A DNA stretch of 64,000 nucleotides from positions 620,001-684,000 of the forward strand of contig JANQAD010000001.1 of the NCBI GenBank assembly GCA_024707205.1, given 5' to 3'. The notes beneath the pieces are model-generated. The model saw only the letters and a list, made by a program, of their open reading frames with translations. It was not told the origin of the DNA and ran no database searches. Both the position numbers and the translations under genes were made by a program. The DNA comes from Demequina sp. (lineage in GTDB: Bacteria > Actinomycetota > Actinomycetes > Actinomycetales > Demequinaceae). How positions within the stretch are numbered: the first letter of the stretch is position 1; each line of letters opens with the position of its first letter. Below, piece by piece: positions 1-49,689 of the stretch.

Positions 1-699
1 CCGCTTGCCGGTCTACCAGGCTCAACGCAATGGCGTCGTCGCGAGCCGCGGCCGCGAGCACCACCGGCGCGAGGCTGGACAGGTCCGAGAACTCCCGCTG
101 CCCAAAGTGCAACTGCTCGATGACCTCGTCGATGCTGTGCGCCCCCAGAGAGGTCAGCACTCCCTCCACGAGCGCCGTCTGCGGGCCGCGCCCGTCGACG
201 GCGCGCGCCGCGTGCCACAGCGCCGCCTGGCCCAGCCCATACCCGCCGCCCCAGTCGCCGGAGATCTCGCCGAGGGCGGGGAAGCGGACCGTGGCGCCGT
301 CCGCGCGGATGCCGACGGCGTTGATCCCCGTTCCGCAGATCACGGCTACCGCGTCGGTCGCCTCCGTGCCGGCGCGCAGCAGCGCGAACAAGTCGTTGTC
401 GACCACCAGCCCCGCGCCGCCCACGCGCATCCGGCCACGCCGGCGCGGTACCGCTCGATCTCGATCGGCAGATCCAGCCCGGAGAGGTACACGTCCGCCT
501 GGACCACCTCGGCGTCGCCGACCACGTCGCGCACGAGCGCGTCGATGACGGCCACCGATCCCTCGAGTCCCACGAGGTGCGGGCTGCTCTTTGGCCCCCG
601 CTTACGCGCGATCACGGTCCCGTCGAGCGCGAGCGCGACGACGTCGGTCTTGGAGCCACCGCCATCGACCGCGATCACGACCTTGTTCGCCGGCGTCAT
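1..699 (-). CDS. BadF/BadG-type sugar kinase (N-acetylglucosamine kinase-like), 3' partial, frameshifted
   Basis: The N-terminus has the actin-fold ATPase phosphate-1 signature (VVIAVDGGGSKTDV). After about 90 residues the frame breaks between roughly 408 and 425. The adjacent frame then continues with VVDNDLF, GTGINAVG and GDWGGGYGLGQ, all typical of the BadF/BadG/BcrA ATPase family, which includes N-acetylglucosamine kinases. The gene runs off the left edge, so its C-terminus is not seen. I chose the ATG at 699 because it overlaps the stop of the upstream GH4 gene as ATGA, which suggests translational coupling; an in-frame ATG lies at 708. From its operon it probably phosphorylates the sugar imported by the adjacent ABC system or released by GH4. 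The shift looks like a one-base error, since both halves are well conserved. Confidence 0.75.
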
Positions 700-1955
700 C
701 TCGCCCACTCCAGGTGTCGCTTGTTCGCCGCGAGCAGCAGGTCCGTGAGGCGCTCGGCGCGGTCGTACTGCAGCACCAAGGGGTTGGCCGCCATCGCTCG
801 CACCACACGCTCCCGGCCGCCGTGAACGGCGGCTTCGAGCGCGAGCCTCTCGTATCCGGCGACGGCGCCGATCAACCCGGCCACGTCGTCGGGCAGGGGC
901 GCGACCGGCTCGGCGACGAAGGTGCCGTTCCGGAAGGTGGCGGGCACCTCAACGACGTGGTCGTCAGGGAGGAAGGGAAGGAGGCCGTCGTTGCGGAGGT
1001 TGACCACGCGAGGCGGGTGGGCGGCGCCCATGATCGCCGCGAGCAGCTCCACCGCGGCCTCGGAGTAGAAAGCGCCGCCGCGGCGCTCTAGCGCCTCGGG
1101 CTTGGTGTCCGCACTGGGATCCGCGTAGATCGCGAGCAGCTCTTCCTCGATGGCGCGAACGGCCTCCGCGCGCGAAGGCTCGGCGAGCTGCTCGGCGAGC
1201 ACCTCGTCGTGCGCGTAGAAGTACCGCAGGTAGTACGACGGCACCATGCCCAGCCCAGCAAGCAGCGCAGGGGCGAGGTGAACGTCGTCGCTGAGCTCAC
1301 CCAACTGATCCCGCAGCAGGCCCGGCAGGCGGTCGACGCCGGCAACGGTCACGCTGCGCTCCCACGTGAGGTGGTTGAGGCCAACGTGACCGAGCCGCAC
1401 GTCGTCGGGCTCCGCGCCCAGCATGCCTGCAAAGCGCCGCTGGAAGCCGATGGCCACGTTGCACAGCCCGACGGCGCGGTGCCCGTGCTCGAGCAGCGCG
1501 CGGGTGACTATGCCAACGGGATTGGTGAAGTCGACGATCCACGCGTCCGGCTTGGCGTGCGCGCGGACCGCGTCGGCGATGCGCAGCACCACGGGAACCG
1601 TGCGCAGGGCTTTGGCGAGCCCGCCCGGCCCGGTTGTCTCCTGGCCGATGCAGTGCACCTCGTGCGGCCACGTCTCGTCCTCGTGGCGCGCCTCCTGGCC
1701 GCCGACGCGCAGCTGCAACAGCACCGCGTCGGCGCCCGAAACGCCTGTTACAAGGTCAGTTGTGGTCACGACGCGCGCGGGGTGACCGGCGCGCGCGAGC
1801 ATCCTTCGCGCCATCCCGCCAACGAACTCGAGCCGGCGCTCGTCGGGGTCCACGAGCGCAACCTCGTCGAGCGGCAGTTCCGCGCGCAGGCGCGCGAAAC
1901 CGTCGATCAACTCCGGCGTGTAGGTGGAGCCGCCGCCAACGATTGCGAGCTTCAT
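696..1955 (-). CDS. GH4 family glycosidase (6-phospho-beta-glucosidase type)
   Basis: This 419-residue protein has the family 4 architecture. An N-terminal Rossmann NAD site (GGGSTYTPEL, residues 8-17) is followed by the VDFTNPVGIVT segment, the metal-site CNVAIG near residue 172 and GLNHLTW. GH4 enzymes need NAD and a divalent metal and hydrolyse glycosides by a redox mechanism. The family mixes alpha- and beta-, phosphorylated and free substrates, so the exact substrate cannot be read here; similarity is to the CelF/LicH 6-phospho-beta-glucosidase branch. No PTS gene is nearby. The neighbours are an oligopeptide-type ABC importer and a sugar kinase, which suggests hydrolysis or phosphorylation of an imported disaccharide. 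It starts 15 bp after the ROK regulator gene and ends in an ATGA overlap with the kinase. Confidence 0.88.
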   Translation of the reverse strand: MKLAIVGGGSTYTPELIDGFARLRAELPLDEVALVDPDERRLEFVGGMARRMLARAGHPARVVTTTDLVTGVSGADAVLLQLRVGGQEARHEDETWPHEVHCIGQETTGPGGLAKALRTVPVVLRIADAVRAHAKPDAWIVDFTNPVGIVTRALLEHGHRAVGLCNVAIGFQRRFAGMLGAEPDDVRLGHVGLNHLTWERSVTVAGVDRLPGLLRDQLGELSDDVHLAPALLAGLGMVPSYYLRYFYAHDEVLAEQLAEPSRAEAVRAIEEELLAIYADPSADTKPEALERRGGAFYSEAAVELLAAIMGAAHPPRVVNLRNDGLLPFLPDDHVVEVPATFRNGTFVAEPVAPLPDDVAGLIGAVAGYERLALEAAVHGGRERVVRAMAANPLVLQYDRAERLTDLLLAANKRHLEWAR

Positions 1956-6997: not shown

Positions 6998-8662
6998 TCA
7001 GTTACTGACGGGCTTGAGGTGCGTGAGCACCACGGCGGATGCCACCGAGAGGTACGGCAGCGGGTTTGCGTACAGGTTGTCGTCCGTTGGCCAGCCCTCG
7101 AACTTCTTCACGTTGAAGAAGGCCTGCGACGCGTTGAGCACAACCGGAATGTACGGCAAGTCGTTCGCGATTTCCGTCTGAATCTGCGCGTACGCGGCCT
7201 GCTTGGTCGCCGTGTCCTGGGTGGCGCCGGCTGTTGCCACCGCCTGGTCCACTACGTCGTTCTTGTAGCGCGAGTAGTTCTGACCGGTGACGGGGCTCTC
7301 CCCTACCTTCACGGTGCCGTTGGACGCGAAGTACTGGCTGTAGTTCGAGTACGGGTCTGCTACGAGCGACTGGGTGAGGCCGTACAGCGCCATCTGGAAG
7401 TCGCCGTTGGAGATTGGCGTCCAGTACTCGGCGTCGGAGACGGTGCGGGCGTTGATGCGAATACCGGCCGACGCCGCCTCCTCGGCGATGAGCTTGGCCG
7501 CGTCGTTGTAGTCGGTCCAGCCGTCCGGCGAGAACAGGTCAAGCTCGATGGCCTTGCCGTTCTTGCCGTAGAAGCCATCGGAACCCTTGGTGTAGCCGGC
7601 GGCCTCGAGGATCTGACCGGCCTTTGCGGCGTCTGGCGACTGCGGGCTCTCGCCGTTCGCCTTGTCCCCGAGCCACTGCTCGTCGCGGGGCAGCAGCACG
7701 AATGCTGGGTTGCTCGTAGCCGGCAGCCCGGCGAAGGCCTTGGAGGCGATGGCCGTGCGGTCGATCGCCGCGTTGATCGCCTGGCGAACTGCGGGATCCG
7801 TCTGGTCGCCCTTGCAGCCGAGGTCGGCGTTGGAGCACGTGATGATGACCGTTGGATCCTGCTGGTTGTTCATGGTGGCGATCTCGCCGCTTGCCGTCAC
7901 CGAGTCAGGGTTGGCGATGAACTGACCCACCCAGTCGAGCTTGCCCGTGGTGAGCAGGTCCTGCGAGGACTGGTTGGAGTCGAGGCCCACGTACTGGACC
8001 TCCTTCACGGCCGGCTCGCCGTCGCGGTAGTTGGGGTTGGCCACCACGGTGTAGGACGCGTCGGAGAACGACTGCACCATGTAGGGCCCAGAGCCGACCG
8101 GCTTGGGGTTCGTCTCCGCCATGTAGTCGGTGATCGACTCCCAGACGTGCTTGGGGATGATCCACGTGGAGCCCAGCGTGAGGGACGCCTCCGTGAACTG
8201 CGGGGTCGAATAGGTGAACACCACCGTGGTGTCGTCCGTGACCTCGGTGTTCACGAGCTTGTCGCTCTTGTTGGAGCCGTAGCCGAAGGTGAAGGCGACG
8301 TCGTCCGCCGTGAGGGGCTTGCCGTCGTTCCACTTGAGGCCCGGCTTGATCTTCACGGTGAGCGTCTTGCCGTCTTCGCTGTAGGTAAACGAGTCTCCGA
8401 TGAGGCCGGTTGGCGGGTCGCTCGACAGTTGGTTGAAGAAGAACAGCGGCTCATAGATGGCGCCGAAGGTCGCGTGGACTGCGGTGTCCACGGCGAAGGG
8501 GTTGAAGTTCTCGCTGATGGGGGTGGCGCTGCCCGCCCACACTCGCAGAACGGCGCCGTCGGAGTTTGAGGCTGAGTCGTTGGTGCAGCCGCCAAGCAGC
8601 AGTGAGAGGGCGGCGGCCCCCGCGGCTACCTGGAGCGCCACCCTTGAGGTGAATCTGCTCAT
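6998..8662 (-). CDS. Extracellular solute-binding lipoprotein, family 5 (peptide/oligosaccharide type)
   Basis: I chose the ATG at 8662, giving 554 residues, because it is preceded by an AGGAAA ribosome-binding site and followed directly by a lipoprotein signal peptide (MSRFTSRVALQ, lipobox LLLGGC). The open frame extends 20 codons further upstream without a signal-like sequence. The body is an SBP_bac_5 domain (LKIKPGLKWNDGKPLTADDV-like core). It should be anchored on the outside of the membrane and deliver substrate to the permeases. It is the first gene of an eight-gene minus-strand operon reaching the left edge of the window. Confidence 0.9.
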   Translation of the reverse strand: MSRFTSRVALQVAAGAAALSLLLGGCTNDSASNSDGAVLRVWAGSATPISENFNPFAVDTAVHATFGAIYEPLFFFNQLSSDPPTGLIGDSFTYSEDGKTLTVKIKPGLKWNDGKPLTADDVAFTFGYGSNKSDKLVNTEVTDDTTVVFTYSTPQFTEASLTLGSTWIIPKHVWESITDYMAETNPKPVGSGPYMVQSFSDASYTVVANPNYRDGEPAVKEVQYVGLDSNQSSQDLLTTGKLDWVGQFIANPDSVTASGEIATMNNQQDPTVIITCSNADLGCKGDQTDPAVRQAINAAIDRTAIASKAFAGLPATSNPAFVLLPRDEQWLGDKANGESPQSPDAAKAGQILEAAGYTKGSDGFYGKNGKAIELDLFSPDGWTDYNDAAKLIAEEAASAGIRINARTVSDAEYWTPISNGDFQMALYGLTQSLVADPYSNYSQYFASNGTVKVGESPVTGQNYSRYKNDVVDQAVATAGATQDTATKQAAYAQIQTEIANDLPYIPVVLNASQAFFNVKKFEGWPTDDNLYANPLPYLSVASAVVLTHLKPVSN

Positions 8663-8730
8663 CGGGGTTTCCTTTCGAGTCCGTGATGTGCCGCAAGCCG
8701 ACGTGCATGGCTGCGTGGTCACGAAGATAT

Positions 8731-8778
8731 AGGAAAGAACGTTTCTAGTAATAGAGTTTGTTGTTACGTTTGGGTAAC
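8731..8778 (-). promoter_or_regulatory. Putative promoter/operator region of the ABC-GH4-ROK operon
   Basis: Directly upstream of the binding-protein gene the sequence is clearly AT-richer than its surroundings. It holds two short inverted repeats: AGAACGTTTCT at 8736-8746 (AGAA-N3-TTCT read on the minus strand) and GTTAC-N6-GTAAC at 8763-8778. Minus-strand candidates for a -10 box are TATTACT and TATATCT. Either repeat could be the ROK regulator's operator; this is inference from position only. Confidence 0.45.
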
Positions 8779-9111
8779 GAAGAGACGACGAAGGCCCAGC
8801 CTCCTCGTGGGGAAGCGAGGCTTCTACTCTGGGCGTGTCTCGAAGAATCGGTCACCCCTGTTACGGCCTGCCGCAGAAGCGGACACTCCCCCGGCTAAGG
8901 CCGTCAACGCACCTCAAGGTCAGCACCGTCTCGCCGCCGAGGCACAACTGAGGGTGGTGAAGCGTGGCTGGGTACCCTTTGGCTCCATCCGCGCGCAGCG
9001 CCCAAAGCGCACTCTTGAGGTGGGCGCTGAAGCAGTCGCTCCCAACTTTGAGAAAGACCGACTGCGTCTATGCGCTTGCGACCGAAGGAGTCTAGGCCTA
9101 AGTTCAGGCCC
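8779..9111. other. Non-coding stretch with one weak hairpin
   Basis: No convincing gene is seen between the operon promoter and the first exported-protein gene. A nested hairpin lies at 8795-8833 (outer CCCAG/CTGGG, inner AGCCTC/GAGGCT), without a following T-run on either strand. Open frames here have no recognisable protein character. Confidence 0.4.
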
Positions 9112-9633
9112 ATGGAGATATCGCCTCGACACGGCACGTCCGCGTCAGGGATTGCGAAGCAGCGAAGGCGTCTCATTGCGGTTCTCTTGGCAAGCGCTCT
9201 TGTCGCCGCGGCTGGCATTACGGCCGCGCAGGCCTCAACTGAATACGGCGCGTGGTACACGGTCGATGTGAACGGGGTCGGGTCGGCGCTGGCGCGCAAC
9301 TACGTTTATTCCAACACAACTAATCACTCGTTCCGTGCTTATACGTTGGTGGAGCGCTATCCGTACACTTCGCACACAATCCCCGCATATGCAGTGGGAG
9401 CACGTGCACTCCTGTACAAAGGTGACACCACGCTCCTCGCCTCAACCACCTATTCCTATAACGTGGCACCAGTACCTGGCAGTACGACCACAGTGGTTCT
9501 CTCCGCGACTCCAACCAAGACCTATACGGACCCTATGGCCGCCTATTCCAATGGCCGAATAAAGGGCACCAACTCCTCGGGAACTTCCTACGAAGCCTAT
9601 ATACCCAGGTCCGCCCAGGTATTCAACTACTAG
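9112..9633 (+). CDS. Unrecognised exported protein
   Basis: From the ATG at 9112 this is 173 residues; an in-frame ATG at 9070 is also possible, and neither has a well-spaced ribosome-binding site. A basic stretch (KQRRR) is followed by a hydrophobic signal sequence (LIAVLLASALVAAAGITAAQA) that predicts export with cleavage after AQA. The mature part is rich in Tyr, Thr and Ser and has no Cys. I do not recognise the family. GC content and codon choice (more A/T third positions) differ from the flanking operons. It lies 24 bp before another exported-protein gene, and the two probably form one unit. Confidence 0.55.
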   Translation: MEISPRHGTSASGIAKQRRRLIAVLLASALVAAAGITAAQASTEYGAWYTVDVNGVGSALARNYVYSNTTNHSFRAYTLVERYPYTSHTIPAYAVGARALLYKGDTTLLASTTYSYNVAPVPGSTTTVVLSATPTKTYTDPMAAYSNGRIKGTNSSGTSYEAYIPRSAQVFNY

Positions 9634-43823: not shown

Positions 43824-43960
43824 TGTGTAGCGCCCGCAGCATGCGCTGACCCGCAGCCCTCGACCCTCAGTCCCCACCTCGCCCGGGAGCGAGCCGCCTC
43901 AACGGCACGGCACCCAGGGTGAGCGAAGCACACCCAAAATCCAACAAAGGGAAGACTCTC
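43824..43960 (+). other. Intercistronic stretch with an eight-codon frame containing Cys
   Basis: Between the surface-protein stop and the next secreted-protein gene, a small frame (ATG TGT at 43823-43849, eight codons, Cys second) overlaps the upstream stop as TGATG. The rest contains short complementary stretches (CGCCCGGGAGCG) but no known riboswitch was recognised. It may be a second regulatory step or simply chance. Confidence 0.3.
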
Positions 43961-46423
43961 ATGCAAGCAACAACAGTGCGGCGCCTGGCGGCCGCATCGG
44001 CAGGACTCGCGGTAGCTGTCACGCCGTTTATCGGGGCCGCCGCGTACGCGACCCCGGACAGGACGGCGTCGACCTCCGTCGACACCACGTACCTCGCGGA
44101 CGCCCTCGGGCTGCCCGCGGAGACGGTCGTCGAGACCGCAACCTACGACCGGTTCCAGTGGCTTCTGCAGCAGCCGGGCCAGTTCGCGTTCATCGTGGGC
44201 TCCACGAACGACGCTGGCTTCAAGGCCAAGGTGCAGCAGGCCGACGCTGCGGCGAGGGCCGCCGGCGTCACCAAGATCTACTGGTTCGACCCCAACCTCA
44301 CGGGCTACACGGACGCCAACCGCAAGCTTGACGTCCGCAACCCCTCCACGATCAACCTCGCCGCGTCGTCGCAGACGATCTTCGGCAACGTGTGGAACAA
44401 CGTGATCGGCCAGTACCTGGGCAACGGCGTCAAGTCAGTGCCGAACTCGTCGGCCAACTCGGTGACGGTCACGCTCGACGACACCGTGGTGAACGACTCG
44501 GTCAACCCCGCGTGGGACCTGCGGACCGGTGAGACCCCCGCGGTGTCCTCCACCGACGACGTGTTCTTCGTCTACGACAAGGACCACAAGGTCGCGGACG
44601 TCGCGGACAAGGTCGTCGACTTCGTGAACCTCTCGACCACGGAGGACCCCACTGCCGGCGTGACGGCCGCGGTCGCGGCAATCGGCGGCGGCGCGGCGAT
44701 CGACCAGATCAGCCAGTTCTACGGGTGGAAGGCGTCGAACAACTTCATCCAGTCGCAGCAGAACGGCGGCACCGAGGCGGGAATCGCTCGCTATGGCGGG
44801 GACATCCTCAAGGACGCCGACAACGCGAACGGGTGGAACGTCAAGCAGGTCACCTACCCCGAACTAGTGCACCTGCTCAACCTCAACGCCGCGGGCGCGA
44901 ACTTCGCGATCCTCTTTGGCGGCACGTGGTGCCCCAACACGAGGGCCGTCATCAAGTTCGTCAACCAGAACGCGGTGGCGAATGACGTGACGGTGTACAA
45001 CTTCGACCTCGTTCTCGACGGCGGCAAGACCAACGGGACCAACCAGGGCGCCAACCCCATCCACGTTCGCGACAACGCGAACAGCGGCACGACGTTCAAC
45101 TTCCGTCCGTCGTACGTCTACGGCGACCTGGTGCGCACGTACTTCAGGAACCTCGTCACCGAGTACGACCCCAACACGGGAACTCGCGTCTCGTACTACC
45201 CCAGCGGCAACCTCACCTCGTTCCCGGACGTGGTGCGCAAGCTGCAGGTGCCCTTCCTGATCAACTACGAACGCGGCACGGGTGGAAGCCCGTCGAGCTC
45301 GAGCGTCAAGCGCCAGTGGATTAAGCAGAACACCGACGCCTCCACGGGCCTGCCGACGTTCAAGGAGTACATGACGAACTGGTGGTTCACGCAGCCGTCC
45401 GACCAGATCGGGCTCAACTTCGCGATCCCGGCGGACACGAGCACCCTGGTGGACCCGCAGAAGAGCCAGTATGAGCAGGCGCTCGCCAACGTGTCCTTCG
45501 CCCAGGAGGCGCTCGACAAGCTGGACGTGTTCTTCGGCGGTCTGCCGGGTGCGGTGAAGTCCACGCGGACCGTCACGGCCCCCGATGTCGCCTACGGCAC
45601 GGACGCCACGATTAACCTCGCTATCGCCAACAAGTACGGCCGCGTGCCGGCTGGCACCGCGACGCTGAACATCGGCGGCACCGACTACCCGGTGACGGTG
45701 GCGCAGAGTGCGGCGCAGTTCACGGTTCACGGCCTCTCGGCTGGAGACCACCCGTTCACGATCACCTACCCGGGCGACGGCCAGCTGCTCCCCTTCACCG
45801 AGAGCGGCACACTCACCGTCACCAAGACCCACGTCGCCTCCGCGGCGGGAGCCGTGGTGACCAAGCCGACGCCGCAGAAGGCCGGAAGCTACAAGGTCAC
45901 GGTGACCCACCCGTCGGGCCTTGGCCAGGCGACGGGCAATGTCACGGTGACGTTCACGCACGGTTCGACGGTGAAGACCGTGACCGGGGCGCTCGCCTCG
46001 GGCGTGGCGACGCTCACCGTTCCGAAGCTGCCTGCGGGCACGTGGACGGCGTCGGTGCAGTACGCGGGCAACGCCGACTACCAGGCGAAGACGGTCGCGG
46101 GAGCGTCCGTTGTGTCCTCGAAGTCTGCCGTGTCCAAGGTGGCGGGGGCCGTCTCCAAGACGCCCAAGTCCACCGCCACCGGAACCTACAAGGTGACGGT
46201 GACCGCGCCGTCGGGCCTCGCGAAGGCAACCGGCAAGGTCACGGTGACCCTCAAGAAGGGTTCAAGCAAGAAGACCGTGACCGGCACGCTGAAGTCGGGC
46301 GTTGTCACCATCTCGGTGCCGAAGCTGGCGAAGGGCACGTGGACTGCCTCGGTCGCGTATGCCGGTGACGCCAACTACGCGGCGAAGACCGCTGCTGGGG
46401 CCTCCATCAAGGTCACCAAGTAG
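43961..46423 (+). CDS. Secreted protein with tandem thioredoxin-like domains and C-terminal Ig-like repeats
   Basis: The 820 residues begin with a signal peptide (RRLAAASAGLAVAVTPFIGAAAYA). A first thioredoxin-like block near residues 60-100 (QFAFIVGSTNDAGFKAKVQQ then KIYWFDPNL) lacks Cys. A second near residues 305-350 has FAILFGGTWCPNTRAVIKF then VTVYNFDLVL, with WCPNT at the active-site position. This is the only Cys in the protein. From about residue 535 three bacterial Ig-like repeats follow (PAGTATLNIGG; ATGNVTVTFTHG; ATGKVTVTLKKG). It is the last gene of the leader/symporter group. A surface role in thiol or cystine handling is an inference from context. Confidence 0.7.
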   Translation: MQATTVRRLAAASAGLAVAVTPFIGAAAYATPDRTASTSVDTTYLADALGLPAETVVETATYDRFQWLLQQPGQFAFIVGSTNDAGFKAKVQQADAAARAAGVTKIYWFDPNLTGYTDANRKLDVRNPSTINLAASSQTIFGNVWNNVIGQYLGNGVKSVPNSSANSVTVTLDDTVVNDSVNPAWDLRTGETPAVSSTDDVFFVYDKDHKVADVADKVVDFVNLSTTEDPTAGVTAAVAAIGGGAAIDQISQFYGWKASNNFIQSQQNGGTEAGIARYGGDILKDADNANGWNVKQVTYPELVHLLNLNAAGANFAILFGGTWCPNTRAVIKFVNQNAVANDVTVYNFDLVLDGGKTNGTNQGANPIHVRDNANSGTTFNFRPSYVYGDLVRTYFRNLVTEYDPNTGTRVSYYPSGNLTSFPDVVRKLQVPFLINYERGTGGSPSSSSVKRQWIKQNTDASTGLPTFKEYMTNWWFTQPSDQIGLNFAIPADTSTLVDPQKSQYEQALANVSFAQEALDKLDVFFGGLPGAVKSTRTVTAPDVAYGTDATINLAIANKYGRVPAGTATLNIGGTDYPVTVAQSAAQFTVHGLSAGDHPFTITYPGDGQLLPFTESGTLTVTKTHVASAAGAVVTKPTPQKAGSYKVTVTHPSGLGQATGNVTVTFTHGSTVKTVTGALASGVATLTVPKLPAGTWTASVQYAGNADYQAKTVAGASVVSSKSAVSKVAGAVSKTPKSTATGTYKVTVTAPSGLAKATGKVTVTLKKGSSKKTVTGTLKSGVVTISVPKLAKGTWTASVAYAGDANYAAKTAAGASIKVTK

Positions 46424-46478: not shown

Positions 46479-47252
46479 TCACCCGCACAGCTTGTTTCCG
46501 CCATACGAGGGATCGTTGGTGATGATGAGGTCACCGTTTGCCGAGCCCCAACCGGGGTTGGCCTCGACGCCCTGGAAGATCGGCAGGCTCGAGCACGAGT
46601 AGCCGCTCGCGAGCGCAACGTTCTGGTTGTTGACCACGACGGTTGGCGTGAAGCCTGCCCACTTGGCGGTGTCGGCAAAGTTGAACGTCACCTTCCACAG
46701 CGCCGCGGACGTGACCGCGCTGAACTGGAACTGCGAATACTGGTGGCCGTTCGCGGTCCACGTGGCCACGGTGCCGATCGTCAAGGTGCAGGACTGCGAC
46801 GTCGCGTTGCCGCTCGCGTCGAGGCCAACACACCCTGGCGTTACGGGGGCAGCGCCGTTCCAGCTCGTGGGGAAGATCCAGCCGCCGATGGTCGCGATGG
46901 CGGCGGAGACGTTCGCGCTCGCGTACGTGCCGACCGTCACCGTCTGCGTGGCGGCGGCCGACGCTGTGGTTCCGGTGGCGATGACCGTTCCGGAGTCATT
47001 GTGCAAGTTGATCTTGAGGCTCAGCCCGGCGCAGGCAGCGGGCAGCGCGCTCACCGTGATCGTGGTGCCGCTCGCGGGGGTCGTCTTGACCACCGGGGTT
47101 GTCCCGTTCATGGAGGCGGCGCAACGCTGCAACTTGGTGAGCGTGACTTCCTTCTTGGTAGTGACTCCGAGGGTCGCGGCGTTGGCCGCGGTGGCGCCCA
47201 CGATGAGCGCGGCGAGGAGTGCGACGGCGGCGACGATCCAGCGCTTGCGCAT
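46479..47252 (-). CDS. Exported protein, partner of the SipW-type peptidase
   Basis: The ATG at 47252 overlaps the peptidase stop and gives 257 residues. A basic start and hydrophobic segment (RWIVAAVALLAALIVGATAANA) precede LGVTTKKEVTL. This strongly resembles LAVTTSKEVAI at the same place in the protein encoded at 47779. The mature part is Thr/Ala/Val-rich, beta-like, with six Cys. It has no C-terminal anchor. The grouping with a SipW-type peptidase recalls TasA-like fibre proteins, but identity with TasA cannot be shown. Confidence 0.65.
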   Translation of the reverse strand: MRKRWIVAAVALLAALIVGATAANAATLGVTTKKEVTLTKLQRCAASMNGTTPVVKTTPASGTTITVSALPAACAGLSLKINLHNDSGTVIATGTTASAAATQTVTVGTYASANVSAAIATIGGWIFPTSWNGAAPVTPGCVGLDASGNATSQSCTLTIGTVATWTANGHQYSQFQFSAVTSAALWKVTFNFADTAKWAGFTPTVVVNNQNVALASGYSCSSLPIFQGVEANPGWGSANGDLIITNDPSYGGNKLCG

Positions 47253-47770
47253 CACTCGTCTCCTTCCTTCGCGGGCCAGACGAGGACAGCGGCGGCGAGC
47301 AGGAACAGCGCTATCCACAGGAATGGGCTCAACAGCACGCCCATGACGGCGCCCACGTGCGGGATGTGCACCTGCACTACCCCGCGGACCTCATCGCCCT
47401 TCGGCGTGAACGGGTCCACGAAGGTGTTGTGGTCTCCCTGAACTGACCAGCCCGATTCGGCGTCGCCGCCGATGACGCGGTGGACGATTTGGGCGCCTCC
47501 GAAGCCATCGGGCGCGTAGACGATCACGTCGCCGACCGTCGGCTCCGTCTGCCACGCGATGAGGAGGTCACCGGGTTGGTAGCCGGGGGTCATCGACTCG
47601 CCGGAGACGAACACGAAGGACGCATGCCCGCCGAACTTCGCGGGCCAGACGAGGAAGGCGAGGACCGCAAGCGTCGCCCACAAGGCGATGGATCCGAGCA
47701 GGCGCCAGCCCCGGCGCGTACGGTCCTCCGTGAGGCCCGCGCCGGAGCTGGCGACTGACTGCTCGGTCAT
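47252..47770 (-). CDS. Type I signal peptidase, SipW (archaeal/ER) type
   Basis: The 172-residue protein has an N-terminal helix (LLGSIALWATLAVLAFLVWPA), catalytic Ser in FVSGESMTPGYQPGDL, and a His in QIVHRVIGGD at the place where ordinary bacterial signal peptidases have Lys. GDHNTFVDPF and a C-terminal helix follow. Ser/His enzymes of this class mature the neighbouring exported proteins in Bacillus (SipW-TasA). Here it is sandwiched between two exported-protein genes with overlapping or close ends, so it most likely processes them. Confidence 0.88.
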   Translation of the reverse strand: MTEQSVASSGAGLTEDRTRRGWRLLGSIALWATLAVLAFLVWPAKFGGHASFVFVSGESMTPGYQPGDLLIAWQTEPTVGDVIVYAPDGFGGAQIVHRVIGGDAESGWSVQGDHNTFVDPFTPKGDEVRGVVQVHIPHVGAVMGVLLSPFLWIALFLLAAAVLVWPAKEGDE

Positions 47771-47778
47771 CAGCCGGC

Positions 47779-48177
47779 TCAGCCGCTGATGATCACCGTG
47801 GCGTCGCCGATGTCGGTGGACAGGGGGATCGCCTTGGAGGTGGCGTCGTAGGTGAACGACGTTCCGGACACGGTGGAGGTGGTGGTCGCGAGCTCGGTGC
47901 CCGCAGCGCTCGCGAGCGTCAGCGCGATCTTCTCGTCCTTGCACGCCGCGTCGATGCCGCTCACGGTCACGTCCTTGATGATGTACGCGGTGCCGGACTT
48001 CTGGTACGTGTAGCCGACGTTGACGCCGTCGGCGTCGCACGGGGCGAAGGTTCCGGAGCCGATCGCGACCTCTTTGCTGGTCGTCACGGCGAGAGTCGAG
48101 GCTGCTGCGAGGGACAGTCCCGCCGCACCGACGATGACGAGTCCAGCGGCCAGGTACTTACGAGTGGCCTTCTTCAT
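47779..48177 (-). CDS. Small exported protein, partner of the SipW-type peptidase
   Basis: From the ATG at 48177 (AGGAG eight bases upstream) this is 132 residues. The signal region (YLAAGLVIVGAAGLSLAAAS) leads into LAVTTSKEVAIGSGTFAPCD; the mature part is beta-like and Thr/Ser-rich with two Cys. The shared VTT(S/K)KEV segment with the product of 46479-47252 marks the two as related. It is the first gene of the three-gene unit. Confidence 0.68.
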   Translation of the reverse strand: MKKATRKYLAAGLVIVGAAGLSLAAASTLAVTTSKEVAIGSGTFAPCDADGVNVGYTYQKSGTAYIIKDVTVSGIDAACKDEKIALTLASAAGTELATTTSTVSGTSFTYDATSKAIPLSTDIGDATVIISG

Positions 48178-48483: not shown

Positions 48484-49689
48484 ATGCCAAGTCAACCGCG
48501 GACCACCGCCGTGTCCTATGAGCCGGTGACGTGGCGACTGCCGGAGCGTCTCGAAGGTCGCGTTGACATCGTGACGGTCACTCGCCTGGAACGTACGCCC
48601 TACCAAGCTGCGGTCCCCGCGCAGATCTCGGACCTGGAGCCACTGGAGCTGCTCGACGTCCGTACCGTGCGTGAAGCGACCACTGCTGAGGGTGCGATCG
48701 CTGCGTTCAACGCCGAGGTGGCACGCTTGCCCGTCCCCATGCCTGCGGTACTGCTCAGGACCGAGTCGGCGTCCAGCTCGCAGATCGAGCACCTGACCTC
48801 CAATGCCCGCAACCTTGCCGTCGCCACCTTGGGGCTCAAGGCCAGCCAGAACGCGTCGCTCGTCGCCCGCAACGTCACCGCGATGCGTGAATCCCTAGCC
48901 GTAGAGGGTCCCGTCACCCCCAATTCGATCCTCGCCATCCACAACGCTCTGCTATCCGAGTCAGACCCGGAGATTGCCGGCGTGTGGCGCGACGGCCCCG
49001 TGTGGATCGGCCGGCCCGACATCAGTCCCCATGGCGCCGACTTCATCCCACCCACGTACCAGCGTGTGCCCGGCTGTATCGAAGACCTGGTGCGGTTCAG
49101 CTCGAAGCCCCACGAATCGCCCCTGGTGGCCGCAGTCGTGGCGCACGCACAGTTCGAGACCATCCACCCGTTCTCAGACGGCAACGGTCGCACCGGGCGC
49201 GCTCTCGTCCACGTGATGCTTCGCGAAGCGCGCCTCACCCCAGACACCACGGTGCCGATTTCCGCGGGGCTCTTGGGCGACACCGATTCGTACTTCGCTG
49301 CGCTCGGCGCCTACCGCGACGGCGACGTGAACCAGCTGGTGTCCGTGTTCGCGGCAGCCACTGAGAGAGCGGTCGTCAACGGGCGCACCCTCGCCTCCGA
49401 TACCGTCACGCTGCGTGACGAGTGGTTGGGCACCATCAAGGCCCGCTCCGACTCGATCGCGTGGCGTCTTGCAGACCACCTCTTCGCACAGCCCGTCGTG
49501 TCCTCTGACTACGTGGAGACCGCGCTCGGAGTGTCCCGACAAGGCGCCTACAACGCCATTGAAGTGCTCCAGCGCGCAGGCGTGCTGCACCAGTACAGCG
49601 CGGACAAGCGCAACCGGTTGTGGCAGGCCGACGGTGTGTTGAAGATCATGGACTCGTTTGCGGAACGAGCCACGCGACGCCGACTTTAG
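48484..49689 (+). CDS. Fic family protein (AMPylase-like) with N-terminal inhibitory helix
   Basis: The 401-residue protein has the complete Fic motif HPFSDGNGRTGR near residue 225, preceded by a helix SSSQIEHL near residue 100 that matches the class II inhibitory motif (S/T)xxxE, here followed by His where Gly or Asn is usual. The C-terminal 100 residues form a winged-helix domain (ALGVSRQGAYNAIEVLQRAG). A GGGAGG site precedes the ATG. Fic proteins transfer AMP to target side chains. No separate antitoxin gene is next to it, consistent with an intramolecular inhibitor. Confidence 0.92.
   Translation: MPSQPRTTAVSYEPVTWRLPERLEGRVDIVTVTRLERTPYQAAVPAQISDLEPLELLDVRTVREATTAEGAIAAFNAEVARLPVPMPAVLLRTESASSSQIEHLTSNARNLAVATLGLKASQNASLVARNVTAMRESLAVEGPVTPNSILAIHNALLSESDPEIAGVWRDGPVWIGRPDISPHGADFIPPTYQRVPGCIEDLVRFSSKPHESPLVAAVVAHAQFETIHPFSDGNGRTGRALVHVMLREARLTPDTTVPISAGLLGDTDSYFAALGAYRDGDVNQLVSVFAAATERAVVNGRTLASDTVTLRDEWLGTIKARSDSIAWRLADHLFAQPVVSSDYVETALGVSRQGAYNAIEVLQRAGVLHQYSADKRNRLWQADGVLKIMDSFAERATRRRL

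What the first reader, a model, noticed from the sequence alone, without database searches (positions are those of the whole stretch)
46479..48177. SipW-type signal peptidase flanked by two exported partners sharing VTT(S/K)KEV
A Ser/His signal peptidase is placed between two genes whose products share a motif just after the signal sequence, with overlapping or very short gaps. In Bacillus SipW matures TasA fibre protein. The partners here are not obviously TasA, are Thr-rich and beta-like, and one has six Cys. They may form a surface fibre in an actinomycete.
Basis: partly seen in the sequence, partly recalled or inferred. Interest (0 to 1): 0.6.

Follow-up and report, generated by a model that had tools for sequence, protein, structure and literature searches.

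The report
Actinobacterial peptidase cassette, possible surface fibre
An actinobacterium of the Demequina group carries a conserved three-gene cassette, a signal peptidase between two related exported proteins that may build a surface fibre, and in some relatives the peptidase is fused to one of the proteins it probably cuts.

Summary
The three genes are real: P1 (132 aa), an S26B-type Ser/His signal peptidase (SIP, 172 aa) and P3 (257 aa), nearly overlapping on the minus strand. The literal motif VTT(S/K)KEV is not conserved, but it opens a homologous domain shared by P1 and the N-terminal half of P3 (hhalign 97.6%), and a reduced form, AxA|[AS]xLx[VL], is. The genome belongs to Demequina. 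P1 and strong SIP occur in the same 20 of 47 family genomes, P3 in 19. In a named scan 68 of 72 SIP loci have P1 directly upstream and 64 have a partner on both sides. In 7 of 20 family genomes, and in Actinotalea, SIP and P3 are one open frame; the tree needs four changes of state, one resting on a weak match. The window's P1 and P3 reach no Pfam or NCBIfam cut-off. The same genome has a separate canonical SipW-type locus, so this is a distinct cassette. P1 models as a six-stranded Ig/FN3-like domain behind a disordered, conserved extension, the layout of donor-strand fibre subunits such as TasA. A dedicated peptidase is well supported by linkage; cleavage and fibre are inferred. Filed as a new variant of the tapA-sipW-tasA kind.

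The parts
47779..48177 (-). P1: 132-aa exported single-domain protein, proposed main fibre subunit
   Evidence: ORF; homologues in 20 of 47 family genomes and directly upstream of 68 of 72 SIP loci
48100..48177 (-). P1 signal peptide, residues 1-26, predicted cleavage after A26 (AxA)
   Evidence: 62-sequence position counts: R at -21 60/62, K at -20 60/62, A at -17 62/62, G at -10 61/62, L at +3 62/62; columns -9 to -1 were partly fixed by my selection pattern. Cleavage site is inferred
48040..48099 (-). P1 mature residues 1-20: flexible N-terminal extension with invariant L3 and mostly hydrophobic 5, 11, 18; proposed donor strand
   Evidence: pLDDT means 47 and 52 for residues 1-10 and 11-20; column counts
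47782..48039 (-). P1 Ig/FN3-like core, mature residues 21-106, six strands, Cys21 and Cys53 invariant
   Evidence: AlphaFold2 model, pLDDT 88-96 per ten residues from residue 21; invariant columns in 62 sequences; VIA-align Z up to 7.2
47252..47770 (-). SIP: S26B-type signal peptidase, two membrane segments
   Evidence: TIGR02228 57.6 bits over 51.85 cut-off; 19 of 19 alignment members match TIGR02228 at E<=0.001; alignment A2
47594..47596 (-). predicted catalytic Ser59 of SIP
   Evidence: invariant in 19 of 19; catalytic role recalled
47480..47482 (-). predicted catalytic His97 of SIP
   Evidence: invariant in 19 of 19; catalytic role recalled
46479..47252 (-). P3: 257-aa two-domain exported protein, six conserved Cys; fused to SIP in some relatives
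   Evidence: ORF; homologues in 19 of 47 family genomes; fusions
47178..47252 (-). P3 signal peptide, residues 1-25, AxA site A23-N-A25
   Evidence: A23 and A25 invariant in 17 of 17
46881..47177 (-). P3 N-terminal domain, homologous to mature P1
   Evidence: hhalign probability 97.6, E 4.1e-12, 101 columns
46482..46850 (-). P3 C-terminal beta domain, four conserved Cys, possibly CBM2-like
   Evidence: AlphaFold2 model; profile hit to a xylan-binding module 1heh E 0.013; hhalign to CBM2 60.8%, 57 columns, 20.2% with whole P3; inconclusive

Best explanation
A dedicated secretion and assembly cassette. P1 and P3 leave the cell through the general secretion pathway with AxA-type signals; the co-encoded S26B peptidase SIP cuts both behind AxA, freeing the conserved N-terminal extension. 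P1, an Ig-like domain that seems to lack its last strand, then polymerises by lending its extension to a neighbour; P3, whose N-terminal domain and extension are homologous to P1 but which carries a second Cys-rich domain, starts, caps or anchors the polymer. Tight coupling of SIP and P3 (1-4 nt overlaps, repeated fusion) would keep peptidase and initiator together in the membrane. Supported here: the cassette, its co-inheritance, homology of P1 and P3, the signal/AxA conservation, the coupling and the fusions. Inferred: cleavage by SIP, the missing strand, strand donation, the fibre, the roles of P3.
For: The same 20 of 47 family genomes hold P1 and strong SIP (>=138 bits); 19 hold P3. P1 upstream in 68 of 72 named loci, partners on both sides in 64 of 72 (nearest downstream partner P3-like in 59, P1-like in 5). 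6 of 8 phylum-level genomes have SIP within about 1 kb of P1. Control: 9 other signal-peptidase loci of the genus show no P1 apart from one 17-bit partial hit (eight of them only about 3.4 kb long). P1 signal strongly conserved. P1/P3 homology. P1 model: disordered residues 1-20, six confident strands; three FN3-scaffold chains align from their first residues to about 75-78 of 92-99, leaving the end unmatched (4lpy 2..76, 5oc7 1..78, 3b83 0..75). DsbA-like and MauE genes upstream in most family loci, fitting the Cys. TasA joins by an N-terminal donor strand at the start of the mature protein, and TapA's N-terminus resembles it (PMC9674648, PMC10151520; passages).
Against: No sequence match and no confident fold match to any fibre subunit among the rows shown; best Foldseek E 0.021, and Z of 6-7 may be only a common sandwich. 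For the P3 N-domain the FN3 rows (such as 6xay 1452..1539) do not show a missing end, so the lacking strand rests on the P1 model alone. The extension may be a plain linker. AxA sites could be cut by the genome's LepB. The cassette is missing in 27 of 47 family genomes. One phylum-level genome has an extra P1-like gene without SIP within the 18 kb fetched (L232). Many Cellulomonas-type P3 have a different, longer C-terminus (13 of 51 rows of about 330 mature residues). No expression, secretion or microscopy data.
Confidence: 0.45

Rival explanations
1. P1 and P3 are separate secreted or wall-attached adhesins matured by SIP, with no polymer; P3's C-terminal domain binds polysaccharide.
For: P3 C-domain has a borderline profile hit to a xylan-binding module (E 0.013) and partial CBM2 profile similarity (60.8%); one relative's P1-like protein ends in an LPITG-type wall-sorting signal, recognised by eye (L236).
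Against: No Pfam CBM_2 match among the families listed for 33 P3 members; does not explain why P1 is a lone domain with a conserved free extension shared with P3.
Confidence: 0.25
2. P3 is not a substrate but a permanent outer subunit of SIP that presents P1 to it; the fusions show the true complex.
For: Fused state needs 4 changes on the tree; 1-4 nt overlaps in 9 of 10 tabulated split loci, window included; the fused L160 keeps only the C-terminal part of P3 and lacks [AS]xL behind AxA.
Against: AxA|[AS]xL is kept in 7 of 7 complete Demequina fusions and in L146 and is the same as in P1, which suggests cleavage; P3 is a P1 homologue.
Confidence: 0.15
3. LepB does the cutting; SIP has another role and the cassette is linked for regulation only.
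For: The genome has a full LepB (138.9 bits) and the sites are AxA.
Against: Near-constant linkage of P1 to this S26B subfamily and not to the other signal-peptidase loci looked at.
Confidence: 0.1

Closest known systems
Bacillus subtilis tapA-sipW-tasA
   Same: S26B peptidase between two exported substrates in one operon, tapA and sipW overlapping; substrates share N-terminal sequence just after the cleavage site; Ig/sandwich folds (PMC9674648, PMC10151520, passages)
   Different: No family-model match of P1/P3 to TasA-type proteins; signals are AxA|[AS]xL, not the SipW-dependent type; small one-domain protein upstream, larger two-domain protein downstream; peptidase fused to the downstream partner in some species
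Actinobacterial SipW / alternate-signal (TIGR04089) locus, here at C1:1467127-1471311 of this genome
   Same: S26B peptidase beside exported beta-type proteins
   Different: Its first substrate matches TIGR04089 and TIGR04088; the SIP profile scores only 37 bits there and no P1 or P3 was found in the 12 kb
Clostridium perfringens sipW-bsaA
   Same: Peptidase needed for export of a polymer-forming matrix protein (PMC7395162, passages)
   Different: Not compared by sequence here
Archaeal thread filament Saci_0406
   Same: Signal peptidase I-cut subunit with N-terminal donor strand (PMC9715654, passages)
   Different: No dedicated peptidase described in the passages read; no sequence comparison made

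Membership tests
Peptidase S26B (archaeal/ER-type signal peptidase I) | Match over TIGR02228 cut-off | tested here: met
   57.6 bits vs 51.85; 19 of 19 members match at E<=0.001. Nearest solved chain by sequence is human SEC11A, E 3.7e-4
Peptidase S26B (archaeal/ER-type signal peptidase I) | Ser/His rather than Ser/Lys active site | tested here: met
   S59 and H97 invariant in 19 of 19; catalytic assignment recalled, activity not tested
SipW equivalog (NF046067) | Score over cut-off 190 | tested here: not met
   Window SIP no match at E<=1. 8 of 19 members match at E<=0.001, best 7e-7; their bit scores were not shown
SipW-dependent / alternate signal substrates (TIGR04088, TIGR04089) | Signal model match | tested here: not met
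   Window P1 and P3 no match at E<=1; not among families matched by 19 P1 members at E<=0.1; genome-wide TIGR04088 finds one place over cut-off, C1:1467160, and one below it, C1:997727, E 0.47, neither in the cassette
TasA/camelysin | Pfam or NCBIfam family match | tested here: not met
   Window P1, P3; 62 mature P1 vs Pfam; 19 P1 vs NCBIfam; 33 P3 vs Pfam. No such family appeared. P3 members beyond the window were not scanned against NCBIfam; that Pfam holds a camelysin model is recalled
Donor-strand-exchange fibre subunits | Ig-like domain lacking one strand | tested here: inconclusive
   Six strands; some FN3 chains matched without their ends; P3 N-domain rows do not show this; that the unmatched end is strand G is recalled
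Donor-strand-exchange fibre subunits | Strand donation in a polymer | not testable with these tools
   No multimer prediction or experiment available
CBM2 | Profile match of P3 C-domain | tested here: inconclusive
   1heh E 0.013; hhalign 60.8% over 57 columns, 20.2% with whole P3, against 0.05% for the unrelated control P1; no CBM_2 among Pfam families of 33 members

The most novel reading that the evidence does not exclude
A signal peptidase that carries its own substrate: in several lineages SIP and P3 are one chain (peptidase, membrane segment, linker, P3 signal, P3), so the enzyme would cut P3 from itself or from a neighbour and hold the first subunit of a P1 fibre at the membrane, making the peptidase both processing enzyme and assembly platform of a previously undescribed actinobacterial donor-strand fibre.
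Probability: 0.3. Interest if true: 0.8.

Novelty: new variant of a known kind. Interest (0 to 1): 0.6.

Why it matters
It would extend protein-fibre secretion by dedicated signal peptidases beyond the TasA and archaeal cases to a protein family in actinobacteria that the libraries used do not name, and the natural peptidase-substrate fusions make a testable case of an enzyme bound to its own substrate.

Tried and rejected
Rejected: that the motif VTT(S/K)KEV is a conserved sorting motif. That P1/P3 belong to TasA, camelysin or another named family; isolated weak matches were taken as chance: CBM_6 0.023 for P1 and PASTA 0.033 for P3, malonate_delta 0.001 and MyfA/PsaA fimbrial adhesin 0.0036 in 1 of 19 P1 members each, DUF5979 0.00099 in 1 of 33 P3 members. 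PHROGs gave nothing for P1 and P3 at E<=0.1; a viral scan gave 2 weak SIP relatives; plasmids one. PDB sequence searches gave nothing convincing for the P1 profile or the single P3. The Foldseek list for P3 was mainly antibody fragments and lectin-like rows. No promoter-like site was found; two terminator-like sites against 1.2 expected. No TasA or pilin row appeared among the fold matches shown, which excludes nothing. A literature search for Demequina with pili or appendages gave no Demequina paper among the 12 listed of 5,266.

Rows dropped before counts: for the signal counts, of 68 upstream P1 hits I left out L138 (frameshifted), three under 50 bits (L159, L161, L163), L121 (failed the pattern) and two duplicates, giving 61 plus the window. 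For the tree six SIPs under 150 bits were left out, L039 and L041 added, and 4 rows left unlabelled. G011 (L045, L138) is frameshifted in all three genes and G034 (L036, L101) ends at a contig edge; neither was counted as fused. The overlap table left out L039. One search held rows on the wrong strand and was replaced. P3 alignment A5 has 31 of the 51 candidate rows plus L027 and L041; left out were the 13 rows of about 330 residues, two with a misplaced start, near-duplicates and a few others. The Demequina loci of the named scan are the same loci as those fetched from the unnamed family genomes, and are not independent counts.

Full report
What is there. Three minus-strand genes fill 48177-46479: P1, SIP and P3. 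SIP is an S26B-type signal peptidase (TIGR02228 over cut-off; Ser59 and His97 invariant in 19 aligned relatives). The window's P1 and P3 reach no Pfam or NCBIfam cut-off. Over wider sets, 0 of 62 mature P1 members matched Pfam at E<=0.01, and the few weak matches among 19 P1 (NCBIfam) and 33 P3 members (Pfam) point to no common family.

The shared motif. It is the visible tip of a larger relation. tblastn within the genus crosses P1 and P3, and profile comparison of mature P1 (62 rows) with mature P3 (33 rows) gives 97.6% and E 4.1e-12 over 101 columns starting at mature residue 1. The motif itself is not kept. Kept are AxA at the predicted cleavage site, then [AS]xLx[VL]: L3 in 62 of 62 P1 and 31 of 33 P3 rows, and a large hydrophobic residue 5 in 97% and 100%. 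The P1 signal is unusually uniform across genera: R at -21 and K at -20 in 60 of 62 each, A at -17 in 62 of 62, G at -10 in 61 of 62 (positions -9 to -1 were partly fixed by my selection pattern).

Where it occurs. The genus is Demequina: same-genus contigs match named Demequina records by length and position. Among 47 genomes of the family, P1 is in 20, SIP at 138 bits or more in the same 20, with three others only weakly matched, and P3 in 19, the missing one (G034) being cut off by a contig end. In the named scan of 72 SIP loci, 68 have P1 directly upstream and 64 have partners on both sides, the nearest downstream partner being P3-like in 59 and P1-like in 5 (hits at E<=0.01, some weak). 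Of the 8 without both, three end at a contig edge (L101, L147, L156) and five are distant SIPs (108 bits or less). Loci with both partners include Demequina, Cellulomonas, Actinotalea, Sanguibacter, Cellulosimicrobium, Arthrobacter, Diaminobutyricibacter and a Propionicimonas bin. In reverse, P1 occurs in 29 of 396 genomes drawn from the order; 15 lie outside the family, and all 15 have SIP beside P1, 12 with a P3-like gene. In the phylum sample of 396, 8 genomes beyond the window had P1 hits; 6 have SIP within about 1 kb, without a clear P3. Of the other two, one is on short contigs and one hit was not reproduced; one of the six also has a second P1-like gene with no SIP in 18 kb (L232). A broader profile gave 9 beyond the window, two of them new and weak. 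As a control, nine other signal-peptidase loci of the genus, including the canonical SipW locus and LepB, have no P1 beyond one 17-bit partial match; eight of the nine are only about 3.4 kb long.

Not the SipW/TasA locus. This genome has a LepB and a separate canonical locus at C1:1467127-1471311 whose first substrate matches TIGR04089 (100.9 bits) and TIGR04088. The window cassette is therefore a third, distinct signal-peptidase locus.

Gain and loss. The cassette sits between MauE/DsbA-like genes (Pfam) and groEL: of 19 cassette-bearing loci fetched, 16 show a DsbA-like gene, 14 MauE and 18 GroEL within the piece. Of 10 cassette-less Demequina genomes whose region I fetched (of 19 searched), none has P1, SIP or P3 hits in the piece, and 9 show the DsbA-like gene and groEL 2.2-2.4 kb apart; in the tenth groEL was not in the piece. 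The cassette is thus present or absent as a unit at one site. DsbA-like genes also lie in 20 of 62 further named loci, 5 of them Demequinaceae. The link to oxidative folding is plausible for Cys-bearing products but could be plain old gene order, as the DsbA-like genes remain where the cassette is missing.

Peptidase-substrate fusion. Of 20 family genomes with the cassette, 11 have separate SIP and P3, 7 have one open frame, one is cut by a contig end and one is frameshifted. In 9 of 10 tabulated split loci SIP and P3 overlap by 1-4 nt; the tenth has 178 nt; L039 was not tabulated. The 7 fused proteins show three hydrophobic segments, a linker of 39-94 residues, and AxA followed by [AS]xL. Two Actinotalea loci are in one frame too: L146, with AxA and ASL, and L160, where only the C-terminal part of P3 is matched (26 bits) and [AS]xL is lacking. 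On a tree of 69 SIP rows with 8 fused the label needs 4 changes, and well-supported branches force 4; L160 is a long branch, so three changes are firm and the fourth rests on a weak match. Changes may be gains or losses.

Structure and mechanism. Mature P1 models with mean pLDDT 85.5; residues 1-20 are disordered (47 and 52 per ten), residues 21-106 form six strands at 88-96. Foldseek gives no match under E 0.001, best 0.021. VIA-align gives Z up to 7.2, largely FN3 and glycosidase Ig-like domains, a level that may mean only a common arrangement; three FN3-scaffold chains numbered from about 1 are matched up to residue 75-78 of 92-99, so their last stretch has no counterpart in P1. That the missing piece is strand G is recalled knowledge, and the P3 N-domain does not show it clearly. 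The layout is that of subunits that complete each other with an N-terminal strand, as shown for TasA, whose donor strand starts at the first mature residues and whose partner TapA resembles it there (PMC9674648 and PMC10151520, passages read). P3 models as a similar N-domain, also behind a low-confidence start, plus a second beta domain. That domain gives a borderline profile match to a xylan-binding module (E 0.013) and partial similarity to CBM2, inconclusive; it is replaced by a longer, different end in 13 of 51 P3 rows. One relative carries a P1-like protein with an LPITG-type end, hinting at wall attachment.

Print. Searches for SipW/TasA with actinobacteria, SipW with Cellulomonas/Demequina/Arthrobacter, fused SipW-like peptidases, TasA donor strands, SipW with archaeal pili, ER-type peptidase with actinobacteria, and camelysin with actinobacteria listed no paper that describes this cassette (titles and abstract starts only, apart from four papers read in passages; open-licence PMC papers only).

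Verdict. The cassette, the homology of its two exported proteins and the fusions are solid sequence findings; processing by SIP is likely from linkage; the fibre is the best guess, not shown.

Noticed in passing
window 43919-46423 (+): Exported protein convergent with P3, with Big_3_5 Ig-like repeats and a Trp-Cys-Pro-Asn-Thr stretch like a thioredoxin site (by eye).
   Followed up: no
window 48484-49689 (+): Fic-domain gene sits between the DsbA-like genes and P1; tblastn at E<=1e-10 found it in none of the 19 other family pieces fetched.
   Followed up: partly
L046 2128-6312 (own genome C1:1467127-1471311): Canonical SipW/alternate-signal locus with a TIGR04089 substrate and a ricin-B-lectin protein.
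   Followed up: partly
L236, minus strand, open frame at 8175-9167: P1-like protein (20 bits) with an LPITG-type C-terminal end beside an S26B peptidase.
   Followed up: no
L224 6886-10339: Four P1-like genes in tandem near a distant S26B peptidase in another actinobacterial family.
   Followed up: no
L039 583-3886: Doubled cassette: P1, SIP, P1-like, SIP, P3.
   Followed up: no
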